A DNA stretch of 32,324 nucleotides, taken from positions 1-32,324 of the forward strand of contig JALVST010000090.1 in the NCBI GenBank assembly GCA_027024205.1, read 5' to 3'. Both the position numbers and the translations under genes were made by a program. Positions 17,067 to 23,508 of this stretch are shown in pieces (position 1 is the first letter of the stretch; each line of letters opens with the position of its first letter). Below the pieces are notes generated by a model that did not search any database, was not told the DNA's origin, and worked only from the letters and a program-made list of their open reading frames with translations. Origin of the DNA: Flavobacteriales bacterium (GTDB lineage: Bacteria > Bacteroidota > Bacteroidia > Flavobacteriales > Flavobacteriaceae).

Positions 17067-19754
17067 CTACATTACAAACCGGGTTTCACTGACAGGCGTA
17101 CGCGTATCCATTGGTAAGCCGCGATTGCGGTGGTCATCTATTTCGGCGGCAACCCCAATGGTTCTTCCAAGTAAAAACAGATTAAACCCGATTTTTTGCA
17201 TGGCTTTTTCGTCCACTTTATTTTGACGGTATAATCGCCACATCAATTTAAGACTGATAGCGGCGATAACAGCATCGATATTGACGGCATACACGTTTTT
17301 GGTGATTTTTTGCCGTTTAAGTGCATGCACTAATGCCTTATAGAAATCCCAAAAAACATTGCGGATGCCGGCTTCTGAAAATTGCTTATAAATATAATCT
17401 TCACGCGGGTCTGTATTAACCGGTTTACCTTTAAAAACCGGATGGTTAATACCCGGTATGCGTTCATAAGATGTTCCTTTGGCTTTGGCTTCATTTTTAG
17501 CTTTACCAAAATTGCTTGCCGCTTGCTCTGCAATCTTTTCTACATCAATATTTTTAGTAGCGGGGTTAAAATCTTGTTGCGAACCGAAAGCGTTCAAAAG
17601 ATAACGGATGCCGACAAATCCGTTACCGCCGTGCGATAAGCCCGTATTGGCTAAGAAACCCATGAATGCCGTAGCAATCTGATTGCCGGCACTGACGCTT
17701 TCTTTGGCTCCTTTGGCACTGATAGTCCCCGGGCCATTGGTCAATGTGATGCCTGCCAAAGTTGAAAATTCTTTAAGTGAAACGGTATCCGGCTCATAAT
17801 TGAATACGGCCTTAAAGATAGTTTCGGTAAATGATTGTGCCGGAGCGGTTCTGCCTGCGATATGAGATTTTATATAATCATTACTGTCAAAATCAGTTGT
17901 GGATAAAATACTGATTAAAGCTATTCTGTTAAAATAATCATAAGTGTCGGCAATGGTATCTTGACTGATTTTTTTCTTGACCAAGGCGGGTAGGAACAAG
18001 TGGAACAGTATGCCTGCAATGATAAATGTATCGCCATCTTTTACTTCATAATTTGCCGTTATGTATTTGATTAATGATAAGGCATTGCTTTTATGATTTA
18101 AAAAATCATTCCACTTATCAATATGAGTTTGGCCATTTTTGAAATTGAAAACGGTTTTAATAGTATCTTTAAATTTTTGCCAATCAATTTCTTGTGACAA
18201 ATCTCGAAGGTTCAAATCTATATAAAGTTGTATGAAATTTTGAATGGTTTGACGGGCATAAGTTATTTTGTCGTTGTCAGGGTTCAAAGCCAGTACCGTC
18301 ATCAAAGCCTGATTGGGAGTAGCCTTATTTTTTTCAGCTTGTTTAATTAAATTAAAATAGCCTTCCGGAACTTGTGATAAATGGTTTAAAATATTGTTAA
18401 TCAATCTTATATCTTGTTTTTTTGGTGGTATTTTTGCCAAGGCAAAAAAGATATTTTCTTCGTAGGAATTTTGTGCCAATTCGGTAACCTTTTTACCGTG
18501 TAGTTCGGCTATGTGGGTTTTGGGGTCCAAAGTGGAGGCACCGGAAGCGTTGCGCATATTTTGGCGTAGAAAGACAGCGCCAAGTGCTTTATTGACACGT
18601 TCTATTTCTTCGTCATAAGGTGAAATGGCTTTGCCAACAGCTTGTTTTAAATTCCCGGGTAGTTGCCAATCAAAATCGTTGCCGAACCAAGCTTTGAGTT
18701 TCAAATCCCCTTTGGGTTCGAAATCGAGTTGCATCCGCCGTTTGTCAAAAACGGCTTTCATAGCCAATGGAATTTGTTGAATGGAATTGACCAAGGCACC
18801 TTTTTCGCTGACAGTATCCGTATTTTCAGGGTCAAAAACATCTACATTAAGGAAGTCTTTAAACCATTGTTCCTTACTGGCGGCATCGTCATTACTACCG
18901 GCCAGGGCCCCGGCATGCCCTACGGCTCTTGACAGTTTGGCTTTCCAATGCCCTGTAACGCAAGCGATAATAGGTTTTGTAAAGTGGTATTTCCCTTCTT
19001 TAATCATATCTAATGCGATTTTTTCATAAAAACCGCCCGGTTCGATATATAGTACGACAGCTTTGGTACGTGCGTCATTTTGTGCAGCGTATAAAAATTC
19101 GGCTACCGGATATTGAATGATGGTATCTTTACCGGAACTGACCAAAGTGGTGACGCCAAATCCTTGTGTTTTAAGATATTCAGTGATGGTGGTGCTAAAA
19201 TTACCCGAATTGCTGTGAATTGCCACAGAGCCTTTCATCAATAATTCTTCGGGTTTGTCACCGCCCAATCCGCCACCGATACGTACGTGATTCCATGCAT
19301 CGGCGACTCCAAGTGAATTGGCACCGAAAACATCTACACTGTTGGCTTGTGCGATAGCCCGTATTTGTACTTGGTCCTTGACACTCAGTTTTTCGGTAAC
19401 GATGATAATTTTTTTTAGTTTTTTGTTATAATGAAGCAATTCGGCTACGGCGTGATAAACAGCAGCAGGAGGGAGGTAAATAACACCTGTATTGAAATCG
19501 TGTTTTGCGACGGCATCGGCCAAGCGGCTGTAAACCGGTATATCCCCGATGGCTGTTTTCATCACCCCCGGACGTCCGTATTGCACGCCTGCCACAACGT
19601 TACCCTCGCTGTAAACGTGTGAAACAGGCGTAACTTTGCGACTTTCGTTCCCTAAAATATTCATAACAAGGACTTTATCTTCTTTTGAAGCGATTTGTTT
19701 CAAGTCGGTTATACCGACGTAACTGTTGAAGGGTTTGCATTTATTGATAGGCAT
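17067..19754 (-). CDS. ATP-citrate-lyase-like large subunit (SucD-like plus citrate-synthase-like)
   Basis: An 895-residue two-part protein. Residues 1-330 resemble the CoA-binding and ligase parts of succinyl-CoA synthetase alpha and ATP-citrate lyase, with the phosphohistidine in VGHAGA (His280). Residues 400-885 resemble citrate synthase, including a full small-domain-like stretch (HGKKVTELAQNSYEEN near 419, a helical region to about 660), LSHGGNG with His708, VNIDAVI with Asp827, and a C-terminal LLGRTIGVAAEIDDH. Length is well above the roughly 610 residues of green-sulfur AclA. At the position of the catalytic His in the lyase motif ADHGP there is Asn673 (TNGPG). It overlaps the small-subunit gene by 14 bases. 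Citrate cleavage is the likely role but unproven. Confidence 0.75.
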   Translation of the reverse strand: MPINKCKPFNSYVGITDLKQIASKEDKVLVMNILGNESRKVTPVSHVYSEGNVVAGVQYGRPGVMKTAIGDIPVYSRLADAVAKHDFNTGVIYLPPAAVYHAVAELLHYNKKLKKIIIVTEKLSVKDQVQIRAIAQANSVDVFGANSLGVADAWNHVRIGGGLGGDKPEELLMKGSVAIHSNSGNFSTTITEYLKTQGFGVTTLVSSGKDTIIQYPVAEFLYAAQNDARTKAVVLYIEPGGFYEKIALDMIKEGKYHFTKPIIACVTGHWKAKLSRAVGHAGALAGSNDDAASKEQWFKDFLNVDVFDPENTDTVSEKGALVNSIQQIPLAMKAVFDKRRMQLDFEPKGDLKLKAWFGNDFDWQLPGNLKQAVGKAISPYDEEIERVNKALGAVFLRQNMRNASGASTLDPKTHIAELHGKKVTELAQNSYEENIFFALAKIPPKKQDIRLINNILNHLSQVPEGYFNLIKQAEKNKATPNQALMTVLALNPDNDKITYARQTIQNFIQLYIDLNLRDLSQEIDWQKFKDTIKTVFNFKNGQTHIDKWNDFLNHKSNALSLIKYITANYEVKDGDTFIIAGILFHLFLPALVKKKISQDTIADTYDYFNRIALISILSTTDFDSNDYIKSHIAGRTAPAQSFTETIFKAVFNYEPDTVSLKEFSTLAGITLTNGPGTISAKGAKESVSAGNQIATAFMGFLANTGLSHGGNGFVGIRYLLNAFGSQQDFNPATKNIDVEKIAEQAASNFGKAKNEAKAKGTSYERIPGINHPVFKGKPVNTDPREDYIYKQFSEAGIRNVFWDFYKALVHALKRQKITKNVYAVNIDAVIAAISLKLMWRLYRQNKVDEKAMQKIGFNLFLLGRTIGVAAEIDDHRNRGLPMDTRTPVSETRFVM

Positions 19755-21003
19755 GATGTTTTGTTTTATTGTTATTTTGTATCATCCAGTTATCGATATC
19801 GACAGCGTATTGAATCACTTCAATCATGGAACTGTCATAACCGAAAAACTTATAGGGTATTTCCAAAGATTCCAAAATATCACGGGCGTAAGCAAAGCCT
19901 TTAATCAGGTTGGGACCACCACGTCCCGAGACTACATACAAATCTTTTTTGGGATGCGTTTTGTAATAATCACGCAAAGCATCAAATATAGCTTTATAGG
20001 TTACAAAAATATCGGTATTGTTGGCTTTACCTCCTATAATCAATAAAACATTGCTTTGTTCAAGCCAATATTTATACACGATTCGGGCGATATGATACAT
20101 TTTTTCGTATGGCGGATTACCACCGAAATCACTGGAAATAGTCGTTTTTTCCGATAATATTTCAGTAGCCGCACTGTTGGCCCCGCCACCGAACATAAAT
20201 GATGTAATAGTCCCTTCGGGATTGATGACTGCTACATCACTTTGCCCCTGATAGGTGCGTAATTGGTTGACTTCAATTTCAAATTCCGATAAATTGGTTT
20301 CAAAAATTTCAGGAGGCAGGTTCAACCTGTCTGTCAAAGGATTGTCTTGGTCCAGCATGCCTTTGTAATCACAGGCAATGGCGTGTAATCGACCGTTTTT
20401 GCGTTCTACACGTATGGGATTTAATTCCAATGTGATAAAACCGTAATCGTTATAAAGTTCCCACAATTTAGGTAGATGACGTACTAAGGCACTGACCAAT
20501 TCTTGGGGAGCATTGAGCTCTGCCAAGGCATCTATGATATGGTAGTTTTTTAAGCCGGTTAGCGGGTCAAAAGATTTGCTGATGATTTTACCGGGTGGTA
20601 ATTCTTCAATATCAATACCGCCATCGATAGACAGTGTAAATTCGGGACGTCTGGAAACGGTTGAAACGTTCAGGTTGAAATAAATTTCATACTCCGAAGG
20701 AATAAATTCTTCAAAAGTCACCCCGTTGGCAATAACTTTTTCGTTGTGAAATTGGTGTTCGACAAAGAACAATTGACGTTTAGCAGCCATAGCATCTTGA
20801 ACATTATCAACTATTTTGACCAATCCGGCTTTGCCTTTTTTTCCAACACCACCGTAAAAAATCGGCTTAACTACAACTTTACCGCGTTTCTCTATTAATT
20901 TTTCAATACTTTCGTAAGTGGCATTGGAATGGAGCACTTCCGGAACCGGAAAGCCTGCCAGTTTAAGAATGGGAGCGCCATAGCGCATGCCTGTGATTCT
21001 CAT
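19741..21003 (-). CDS. ATP-citrate-lyase-like small subunit (ATP-grasp and citrate-binding)
   Basis: A 420-residue protein. Residues 1-220 are a succinyl-CoA synthetase beta-like ATP-grasp domain (KVVVKPIFYGGVGKKGKAG near 44, FITLELNPIRV near 195). Residues 240-400 match the citrate-binding domain of ATP-citrate lyase, with SFMFGGGANSAATEIL, FGGNPPYEK, VLLIIGGKANNTD and VVSGRGGPN in order. In known lyases this subunit activates citrate with ATP and the large subunit splits citryl-CoA. Gene order (small then large, 14-base overlap) is that of green-sulfur aclB-aclA. Immediately upstream is a 14-bp triple repeat and no clear promoter box. Confidence 0.8.
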   Translation of the reverse strand: MRITGMRYGAPILKLAGFPVPEVLHSNATYESIEKLIEKRGKVVVKPIFYGGVGKKGKAGLVKIVDNVQDAMAAKRQLFFVEHQFHNEKVIANGVTFEEFIPSEYEIYFNLNVSTVSRRPEFTLSIDGGIDIEELPPGKIISKSFDPLTGLKNYHIIDALAELNAPQELVSALVRHLPKLWELYNDYGFITLELNPIRVERKNGRLHAIACDYKGMLDQDNPLTDRLNLPPEIFETNLSEFEIEVNQLRTYQGQSDVAVINPEGTITSFMFGGGANSAATEILSEKTTISSDFGGNPPYEKMYHIARIVYKYWLEQSNVLLIIGGKANNTDIFVTYKAIFDALRDYYKTHPKKDLYVVSGRGGPNLIKGFAYARDILESLEIPYKFFGYDSSMIEVIQYAVDIDNWMIQNNNKTKHHAYQ

Positions 21004-21431: not shown

Positions 21432-22901
21432 TCATAAAATATAAATCATCAAAAATTTGCCCGGTTTTAACATATCGATATTAATTTTGCTTGTTTTGGC
21501 AGAAATCAATAATGTTTTACCTTTTTTTAAATTGATTCCGTTAATGTTAAAGTCTCCGTCTCCGGTATTCATTAGAATGATAAAACTGTCGAGTTCTTTA
21601 ATATTGATGGTTTTTGAGTTTGTGATATTGATTTTTTCAATTTTAAAATAAGGGGTATCGATAAAATTTTCTGTTTTTTTATCCGGTTGTGCTTTGAAAT
21701 TGATTGCTTCCAAGGCGAGGTCAGTATGCAATTCGCGGGGTTTTCCATCCAACCCGGGGCGGTTCCAATCGTAAATACGGTAAGTAATATCGGAACTTTG
21801 TTGCACTTCTGCCAGTAAAATACCTTTTCCGATAGCATGAACCGTTCCGGCAGGTATATAAAAGGTATCGCCTTTTTTTACTTCTATTTTGTTGAGTAAG
21901 TATTCCAATTTTCCGTTTTGTAAGGCTTCCAGATATGCTTTATGTGTTGTTCCGCTTTTAAATCCGAGGTATAAAACAGCCCCTTTATCGGCTTGAATGA
22001 TATGCCATAATTCGTTTTTCCCGAAAGATCTGTGCTTTTTGTAGGCAATATTATCGTCGGGATGTACCTGTATGGATAAATCATCGTTGGAATCTATGTA
22101 TTTGATTAACAAAGGAAAATTATTGCCGTATTTTTTGTAATTGTTTTTACCCAACAAATATGCTTGGTATTTACGGATGAGTTCTTGTAAATTTTTTCCT
22201 TTGAAATATCCGGATTTAACGACCGAAATGTTTTCAGGCACATTGGAAATTTCCCAACTTTCGCCGGTATGATTACCGGGAATATTTTTGTTTAATATAC
22301 TTTTTAATTTATAACCACCCCAAGGTTTTTCTTTGAATATAGGCTTAAATTCCAAGGGATATTGGAGCATTTTTAAAGCCAATTGCTCTTTTAATTTGCC
22401 TAACGAATTATCAAAGATAATTTTGAACCATTCCGTATATTTTTCAGGATGCTTTTTGATATCCGATTCAATATTTTCGAGACTTTCATAAGTGTAATCC
22501 ATGACTTCGCCGGGATTAATACGAGGAGATTTGTTACTGAAACCGATCATAACATGGTCCAGTTCGTGTTCGGTCAGTCCGTTATCAAATGGGGCTTTGT
22601 AAACGAAATGAAAAACTTCAGTTAGGTTGGCTGTTAGTCCCATTTCTTCCATCAAACGGCGTTTGCCCGCTTCAATATTAGTTTCGTTTTTACGTTGATG
22701 ACTGCAAACCGTATTGGTCCACAGGCCGGGCGAATGGTATTTGTGAGCGGCACGCTGTTGGAGCAGGAGTTCGCCTTTGTCATTAAAAATAAAGACAGAG
22801 AATGCCCGGTGTAATAAGGCTTTTTCGTGGGCTAACATCTTGGGAGCGTAGCCCAAAACTTCATCTTTTTCGTTGACCAATATGACTTGTTCTTCTTGCA
22901 T
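21432..22901 (-). CDS. Isopentenyl-diphosphate isomerase / mannose-6-phosphate isomerase fusion
   Basis: One 489-residue frame holds two complete enzymes. Residues 1-165 are a type I IPP isomerase (Nudix fold): active-site Cys66 in TNTVCSHQ, Nudix-like EAGKRRLMEEMG near 77, and HELDHVMIG with the catalytic Glu region near 112. Residues 180-489 are a short bacterial type I ManA: Gln278 and His280 in QVHPDD, Glu297 in KNELWH, His355 in PAGTVHAIG, and IYDWNR at the end of the catalytic part. The first interconverts IPP and DMAPP for isoprenoids, the second fructose- and mannose-6-phosphate. A six-codon longer start at 22919 overlaps the promoter box, so MQEEQ was chosen. I know of no standard reason for this pairing. 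Confidence 0.88.
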   Translation of the reverse strand: MQEEQVILVNEKDEVLGYAPKMLAHEKALLHRAFSVFIFNDKGELLLQQRAAHKYHSPGLWTNTVCSHQRKNETNIEAGKRRLMEEMGLTANLTEVFHFVYKAPFDNGLTEHELDHVMIGFSNKSPRINPGEVMDYTYESLENIESDIKKHPEKYTEWFKIIFDNSLGKLKEQLALKMLQYPLEFKPIFKEKPWGGYKLKSILNKNIPGNHTGESWEISNVPENISVVKSGYFKGKNLQELIRKYQAYLLGKNNYKKYGNNFPLLIKYIDSNDDLSIQVHPDDNIAYKKHRSFGKNELWHIIQADKGAVLYLGFKSGTTHKAYLEALQNGKLEYLLNKIEVKKGDTFYIPAGTVHAIGKGILLAEVQQSSDITYRIYDWNRPGLDGKPRELHTDLALEAINFKAQPDKKTENFIDTPYFKIEKINITNSKTINIKELDSFIILMNTGDGDFNINGINLKKGKTLLISAKTSKINIDMLKPGKFLMIYIL

Positions 22902-22916
22902 AAAAAAAATATGACA

Positions 22917-22924
22917 CAAAGATA
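22917..22924 (-). promoter_or_regulatory. -7 promoter box TATCTTTG (isomerase fusion)
   Basis: Perfect TAnnTTTG on the minus strand, 15 bases before the ATG at 22901. An upstream ATG (22919) falls inside it. Confidence 0.6.
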
Positions 22925-22998: not shown

Positions 22999-23508
22999 AT
23001 GTCGAATGCGACTAATAAAAAAATTGAAATGAATAAGCATTTTTCATATAATCAATTTGGACAGGGGAATAAAATAGAGGCATGTCCCGTGTCTTATCAA
23101 CAAGTAAATAGAAATTTAATCAAAGCTTACAGTAGTATTGTTTTGATTGTTTTAGTTTATACGTTAATGACACATCAATACTGGGCGATGTACCTTATCA
23201 GTTTGGATTTTTTCATCCGGGTTTTTGCAGGTATAAAATATAGTCCGCTTTGTAATTTATTGACGGCGATGATGAAAATTACCTCCTTAAAACCCGTTTT
23301 GGTAAATGCGGCTATTAAGAAAATAGCGGCAAAAGTAGGATTGATTTTTGCCATTGGTGTCTGTGCATTTCATTTAGCGGGTTATGAATTTTTGTCCGAC
23401 ATATTCATTTATATGTTTATGTTTGCCATCAGTTTGGATTTGGTGTTCAATTACTGTTTGGCTTGCAAATTACAAAGTCTGTATTTGAGTTATTTCAGTA
23501 AGCGTTAG
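22999..23508 (+). CDS. DUF4395 family membrane protein
   Basis: A 169-residue protein with about four membrane helices (roughly 45-60, 65-85, 112-130, 134-155). The start CPVSYQQVNRNLIKAYS and the segment DFFIRVFAGIKYSPLCNL are typical of DUF4395, an integral membrane family of unknown role. Cysteines at CPVS, SPLC and a late CLAC are notable for a small membrane protein. An alternative ATG at 23032 (MNKHFSYN) would remove 11 residues. It has its own promoter and a strong terminator. Confidence 0.8.
   Translation: MSNATNKKIEMNKHFSYNQFGQGNKIEACPVSYQQVNRNLIKAYSSIVLIVLVYTLMTHQYWAMYLISLDFFIRVFAGIKYSPLCNLLTAMMKITSLKPVLVNAAIKKIAAKVGLIFAIGVCAFHLAGYEFLSDIFIYMFMFAISLDLVFNYCLACKLQSLYLSYFSKR

What the first reader, a model, noticed from the sequence alone, without database searches (positions are those of the whole stretch)
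21432..22901. IPP isomerase fused to mannose-6-phosphate isomerase
One uninterrupted frame holds a complete type I IPP isomerase (Cys66, HELDH) and a complete short ManA (QVH at 278-280, Glu297, His355). The two enzymes belong to isoprenoid and sugar-nucleotide pathways with no usual link, except possibly lipid-linked sugar or polyprenyl-phosphate mannose synthesis. All visible active-site residues are kept, so both halves look functional. I do not know of this domain pairing as a described architecture.
Basis: partly seen in the sequence, partly recalled or inferred. Interest (0 to 1): 0.65.

Follow-up and report, generated by a model that had tools for sequence, protein, structure and literature searches.

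The report
Isoprenoid and mannose isomerases fused together
In one lineage of Flavobacteriaceae, two unrelated housekeeping enzymes (one for isoprenoid building blocks, one for mannose phosphate) have become a single inherited protein, apparently when a gene lying between them was lost.

Summary
On the minus strand (22901 to 21432) one 489-codon ORF encodes a complete type I IPP isomerase (about 1-165) joined end to end to a complete short type I mannose-6-phosphate isomerase (about 182-489). It is not an assembly join: the junction recurs in 11 of 12 same-genus genomes (the twelfth is cut off before it), in two more genera of the family and in further MAGs, down to about 52% identity. Trees of each half group all 18 fused sequences (ManA 100/99, Idi 95/75), so one origin is likely. 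Checked active-site residues are invariant in 16 of 16, and both halves are under purifying selection. In 12 of 12 unfused family relatives a PTPS-family gene follows idi, and in 6 of these manA comes next. Fused-clade genomes examined lack that PTPS paralogue. The likely origin is deletion of ptpS from an idi-ptpS-manA cluster. I infer a bifunctional enzyme with two independent sites and no shared chemistry; activity is untested. Searches of open-access papers gave no description of the pairing. A clean new domain architecture of two ordinary enzymes, moderately interesting.

The parts
21432..22901 (-). fused idi-manA gene, 489 codons plus stop
22407..22901 (-). type I IPP isomerase domain, residues 1-165
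   Evidence: NCBIfam NF002995 and TIGR02150; PDB matches
22359..22406 (-). junction, residues 166-181; in the model one helix spans 157-178
21435..22358 (-). short type I mannose-6-phosphate isomerase domain, residues 182-489
   Evidence: TIGR00218, PF20511, PF21621; 1qwr
22917..22924 (-). TATCTTTG, promoter-like TAnnTTTG element (name of the motif recalled) upstream of the start
   Evidence: in 17 of 18 fused genes, 0.64 expected
22999..23508 (+). divergent neighbour, DUF4395 (PF14340), present beside most fused genes of the genus; not part of the fusion

Best explanation
A bifunctional fusion enzyme. The N-terminal type I Idi interconverts IPP and DMAPP; the C-terminal short type I ManA interconverts fructose-6-phosphate and mannose-6-phosphate. 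The two sites work independently on one chain. The gene most likely arose once, in an ancestor with the order idi-ptpS-manA: deletion of ptpS put the 3' end of idi in frame with the 5' end of manA. One promoter then drives both, and the fusion was inherited vertically. Shown: ORF, domains, residues, conservation, grouping in both trees, absence of the idi-linked ptpS paralogue from the fused-clade genomes examined. Inferred: deletion as the joining event, both catalytic activities, one stable chain, no channelling.
For: Both halves over curated cut-offs. Junction seen in 11 of 12 same-genus genomes, in 6 of 397 family genomes from three genera and in 15 of 80 kept loci of the species-genome scan, which overlap with these. 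18 fused rows are one side of a branch in both trees (Idi 95/75, ManA 100/99). 10 Idi and 4 ManA positions invariant in 16 of 16. dN/dS in 8 pairs 0.03-0.09 (Idi) and 0.06-0.17 (ManA). PTPS next to idi in 12 of 12 unfused family relatives G013-G024, manA next in 6 of them; 14 of 14 PTPS found in fused-clade genomes are the other paralogue, across a 100/100 branch. No second ManA by HMM and no second type I Idi by protein search in this genome. Model pLDDT 95.0, pTM 0.90.
Against: No activity data. The Idi tree's support is not strong (95/75), and the trees are midpoint-rooted without an outgroup. In 6 of 12 unfused relatives manA is not beside idi. G176 has idi and manA adjacent and separate, its PTPS copies elsewhere, so loss of the middle gene need not fuse the ends. 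Absence of PTPS rests on draft genomes; L039-L043 were not searched for it. The mevalonate marker is just under its cut-off (167 vs 171.35 bits) and the same search rings below cut-off in control genomes, E. coli among them. Type II Idi was not searched.
Confidence: 0.75

Rival explanations
1. The halves reach the cell mainly as separate proteins, by internal initiation near residue 178 or by cleavage in the junction.
For: In the window's gene an ATG lies at residue 178, just where unfused ManA begins; 9 of 16 full-length fused genes have an ATG within 166-183. The junction is the least constrained part (dN/dS 0.07-0.52).
Against: 7 of 16 lack an ATG in 166-183, and L004, L005 and L006 have no ATG, GTG or TTG from 160 to 190. 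The model predicts an unbroken helix over 157-178 at high pLDDT.
Confidence: 0.1
2. The fusion was selected because it couples isoprenoid and mannose supply, for example for polyprenyl-linked mannose, with communication between the two sites.
For: Kept across three genera and down to about 52% identity; predicted rigid helical join, pTM 0.90.
Against: The two reactions share no intermediate (established pathways). Gene order alone explains the partners. No nearby gene of such a pathway was identified among the window proteins searched.
Confidence: 0.1
3. One half is catalytically dead and kept as a scaffold or for another role.
For: ManA evolves somewhat faster than Idi in most of the 8 pairs.
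Against: Catalytic and metal positions checked are invariant in 16 of 16 in both halves; each is the only copy of its kind found (type II Idi not searched).
Confidence: 0.04
4. Assembly or binning artefact joining two contigs.
For: The genome is a draft in 151 contigs.
Against: Same junction in many separately named MAG assemblies, with most fused genes away from contig ends.
Confidence: 0.01

Closest known systems
Type I isopentenyl-diphosphate delta-isomerase (E. coli Idi; PDB 1hx3, 1nfs)
   Same: Residues 4-180 match 1hx3 over 175 positions at 33% identity, Z 25.0, rmsd 2.3; catalytic Cys67/Glu116 equivalents are Cys66/Glu113 (numbering of E. coli residues recalled; alignment)
   Different: The C-terminal helix runs on into a second enzyme
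Short type I mannose-6-phosphate isomerase (B. subtilis ManA, PDB 1qwr; A. fulgidus, 1zx5)
   Same: Residues 180-488 match 1qwr over 298 positions at 35% identity, Z 37.9, rmsd 1.7
   Different: Carries an Idi at the N-terminus
idi-ptpS-manA gene cluster of other Flavobacteriaceae (Kordia, Mangrovimonas, Winogradskyella)
   Same: Same two enzymes, same order and strand
   Different: Separate genes, with a PTPS-family gene and in some loci a further gene (peroxiredoxin-like by eye) between them

Membership tests
Type I IPP isomerase | Score over the curated cut-off of the family model | tested here: met
   NF002995 159.7 vs 127 bits; TIGR02150 123.1 vs 105.8
Type I IPP isomerase | Catalytic Cys and Glu, metal ligands, Tyr and Trp of the active site (roles recalled) | tested here: met
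   H25, H31, C66, H68, E85, E86, Y101, E111, E113, W158 invariant in 16 of 16 full-length fused proteins (alignment to E. coli)
Type I IPP isomerase | IPP/DMAPP isomerisation | not testable with these tools
   needs an assay
Type I mannose-6-phosphate isomerase | Score over the curated cut-off of the family model | tested here: met
   TIGR00218 142.6 vs 116.2 bits; PF20511 44.6 vs 22
Type I mannose-6-phosphate isomerase | Zinc-site Gln, His, Glu, His (roles recalled) | tested here: met
   Q278, H280, E297, H355 invariant in 16 of 16
Type I mannose-6-phosphate isomerase | Fructose-6-phosphate/mannose-6-phosphate isomerisation | not testable with these tools
   needs an assay
Conserved gene fusion (not a local event) | Same junction in independent genomes | tested here: met
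   11 of 12 same-genus genomes; 6 of 397 in the family draw, three genera
Conserved gene fusion (not a local event) | Fused sequences form one group in trees of both domains | tested here: met
   ManA 100/99; Idi 95/75, not strongly supported; midpoint rooting only

The most novel reading that the evidence does not exclude
The fusion is more than a by-product of ptpS loss. Joining Idi rigidly to ManA through one continuous helix created a control point by which this lineage couples isoprenoid supply to mannose supply, for polyprenyl-linked mannose sugars, each substrate affecting the other site.
Probability: 0.08. Interest if true: 0.7.

Novelty: new variant of a known kind. Interest (0 to 1): 0.4.

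Why it matters
It adds a two-enzyme architecture that I did not find described, with its likely history still readable in living relatives: idi-ptpS-manA cluster, loss of the middle gene, in-frame joining, inheritance through three genera. It warns that a conserved fusion can reflect gene neighbourhood and not a shared pathway, which bears on methods that infer functional links from fused genes. It also offers a naturally linked pair for testing whether joining unrelated enzymes has kinetic effects.

Tried and rejected
Triple fusion Idi-PTPS-ManA: the genome search gave open frames of 665 and 696 aa for G017 and G013, but reading the loci showed three separate genes in each. Rejected.

Assembly artefact: rejected by independent orthologues.

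Fusion elsewhere: searches with P0001 at E <= 1e-98 gave only the window's own genome in draws from the order (1 of 296), class (1 of 295) and phylum (1 of 296); the draws share genomes, and even same-genus fused genomes were not drawn, so they are thin samples. The species-genome scan used six short peptides of this protein and kept 80 of 246 relatives, so a diverged or independent fusion would be missed.

Papers: four searches on the pairing returned 0, 0, 1 and 13 papers (10 of the 13 listed); none describes it by listing and start of abstract. I opened no paper. One search on fusion in operons and two on flavobacterial ATP citrate lyase were seen as listings only.

Row handling: my labels K294, E296 and R374 were misnumbered guesses (they fall on G, N and Y) and are not used. 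L112 and L113 are in the trees but not in the residue counts. Left out of the trees as duplicates or contig-cut: L011, L012, L031, L033-L038, L044, L045, L114. Identical rows were dropped (Idi 52 rows). The ManA tree used 62 of 88 prepared rows, these having at most 40 ManA-only loci.

The fold comparison lists no other two-domain protein like this one; a match that is not listed proves nothing.

Full report
Observation. The finding's coordinates are right and lie on the minus strand. The reverse complement of 21432-22901 is one open frame of 489 codons ending in a stop; the plus frame is not open. Residues 1-162 score over the curated cut-offs of two IPP isomerase models and the C-terminal half over that of ManA class I. 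The best solved relatives are B. subtilis ManA (1qwr) and bacterial and human type I IPP isomerases.

Conservation. Of 12 same-genus genomes, 9 hold the full-length fusion at 65-83% identity. Two more (G003, G010) are cut by a contig end but run through the junction. G004 shows only residues 1-56 at a contig end and says nothing. In a draw of 397 genomes of the family (237 genera by its tally), uninterrupted matches across both domains occur in 6: G000, G001, G012, G260, G397 and G234, from genera g1, g249 and g223; the match list was cut, but it is sorted by E-value. G176 spans both domains but with four stops; it is two separate neighbouring genes. The second g249 genome, G412, had no match at all. 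Among the 80 loci kept from the species-genome scan, 15 (L031-L045) carry both domains in one frame, two of them contig-cut; several are the same genomes as above. Draws from order, class and phylum showed no other case at E <= 1e-98, but they are thin.

One origin. In the Idi tree (52 rows, 18 fused) the fused rows are one side of a branch with support 95/75; in the ManA tree (62 rows, 18 fused) with 100/99. One origin is well supported by ManA and not contradicted by Idi. The trees have no outgroup; that unfused is the ancestral state is assumed because separate genes are general in other bacteria (established knowledge).

How it arose. In the 12 same-family relatives outside the genus (G013-G024), a PTPS-family gene with E 3e-33 to 4e-36 lies next to idi in 12 of 12; manA follows on the same contig in 6 (G013, G017, G020, G021, G023, G024) and lies elsewhere or was not found in the other 6. 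In 12 of 12 idi loci whose ORFs I read, a gene of about 140 aa follows idi; 11 of the 12 also hold manA further on, in some after a peroxiredoxin-like gene (by eye). That gene is PTPS family (PF01242 120.9 bits, over the cut-off; TIGR00039 98.6 bits, under its cut-off of 125.5). By tblastn it was found in 16 of 18 idi loci given, missing in L111 (G176) and L029 (G027, another family). Of the 12 same-genus genomes, 11 have a single, weaker PTPS hit (2.5e-29 to 2.0e-26) and G010 none; the window's genome has none. G234, G397 and G260 have one weaker hit each, G412 none. A tree puts all 14 of these sequences with the unlinked QueD-like paralogue, across a 100/100 branch from the idi-linked one; its bootstrap had not fully settled. 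For G004, one of the 14, the junction itself is not seen. L039-L043 were not searched for PTPS. So the idi-linked paralogue is missing from every fused-clade genome examined, all drafts. In G176 idi and manA are adjacent, separate genes and both its PTPS copies are of the idi-linked type but elsewhere: removal of the middle gene need not fuse the ends. By eye the junction holds no PTPS remnant: unfused Idi ends near residue 171-175 and unfused ManA begins at the equivalent of 178.

Surroundings. A divergent DUF4395 gene lies upstream of most fused genes of the genus and of L113 and L114, though not found in L006/L034; mnmA follows the fused gene directly in most of them. No DUF4395 match occurred in the unfused loci held. 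In the window two ATP-citrate-lyase-like genes lie between the fusion and mnmA.

Function. Ten Idi positions (His25, His31, Cys66, His68, Glu85, Glu86, Tyr101, Glu111, Glu113, Trp158) and four ManA positions (Gln278, His280, Glu297, His355) are invariant in 16 of 16 full-length fused proteins. In 8 pairs dN/dS is 0.03-0.09 for Idi and 0.06-0.17 for ManA, with dS high; the 18-codon junction is looser, 0.07-0.52. No second ManA was found by HMM and no second type I Idi by protein search; type II Idi was not searched. A mevalonate diphosphate decarboxylase homologue scores 167 bits against a cut-off of 171.35; the same search rings in 8 of 14 control genomes, over the cut-off in 2, E. coli among the ringing ones, so the marker is suggestive. 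ispH was not found, while it rings in 9 of 14 controls. If the genome is mevalonate-only, Idi is needed for DMAPP (established pathway). A TAnnTTTG element lies 18-25 nt before the start in 17 of 18 fused genes, 0.64 expected; L043 lacks it. In 8 unfused loci it precedes idi in 7 and manA in 2, within 60 nt.

Structure. The AlphaFold model from a 43-row alignment, 13 of them fused and the rest unfused halves, has pLDDT 95.0 and pTM 0.90, with one helix over 157-178 leading from Idi to ManA. Residues 180-488 match 1qwr (Z 37.9, rmsd 1.7, 298 aligned) and 4-180 match 1hx3 (Z 25.0, rmsd 2.3, 175 aligned).

Internal start. 7 of 16 full-length fused genes lack an ATG within 166-183, and L004, L005 and L006 have no ATG, GTG or TTG from 160 to 190; the window's gene does have an ATG at 178. 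A general internal-start mechanism is unlikely.

Verdict. A real, conserved fusion, most likely formed once and most simply a result of gene-order history. Both domains are ordinary members of known families; the architecture is what is new. Four searches of open-access papers gave no report of it.

Noticed in passing
window 17067-19754 (-) and 19741-21003 (-): Two adjacent genes resembling a two-subunit ATP citrate lyase (PF16114 citrate-binding 67.9 bits over the cut-off in one; succinyl-CoA-ligase-like and citrate-synthase domains in the other). In a flavobacterium this could point to a reductive TCA cycle; other key enzymes were not searched.
   Followed up: partly
L031 7565-7800: Two short remnants of the same AclA-like gene (59 aa at 92% and 19 aa at 84% identity) just after the fused gene in the closest relative: the pair seems to have been lost there.
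   Followed up: partly
L111; G176 C1:2122409-2122798 and C1:31147-31533: idi and manA adjacent and unfused, while two PTPS genes of the idi-linked type sit elsewhere in the genome.
   Followed up: partly
window genome G000: No PTPS-family gene at all, although 11 of 12 same-genus genomes keep the QueD-like one; loss or a gap in the draft.
   Followed up: no
L039, L101: Record titles say Chlorobiota and Ruminococcus, yet the sequences match Bacteroidota proteins (L039 lies within the fused clade); the records may be misnamed or misbinned.
   Followed up: no
window 22999-23508 (+): DUF4395 membrane-like protein divergent from the fusion and found beside most fused genes of the genus, not in the unfused loci held; no function known.
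   Followed up: partly
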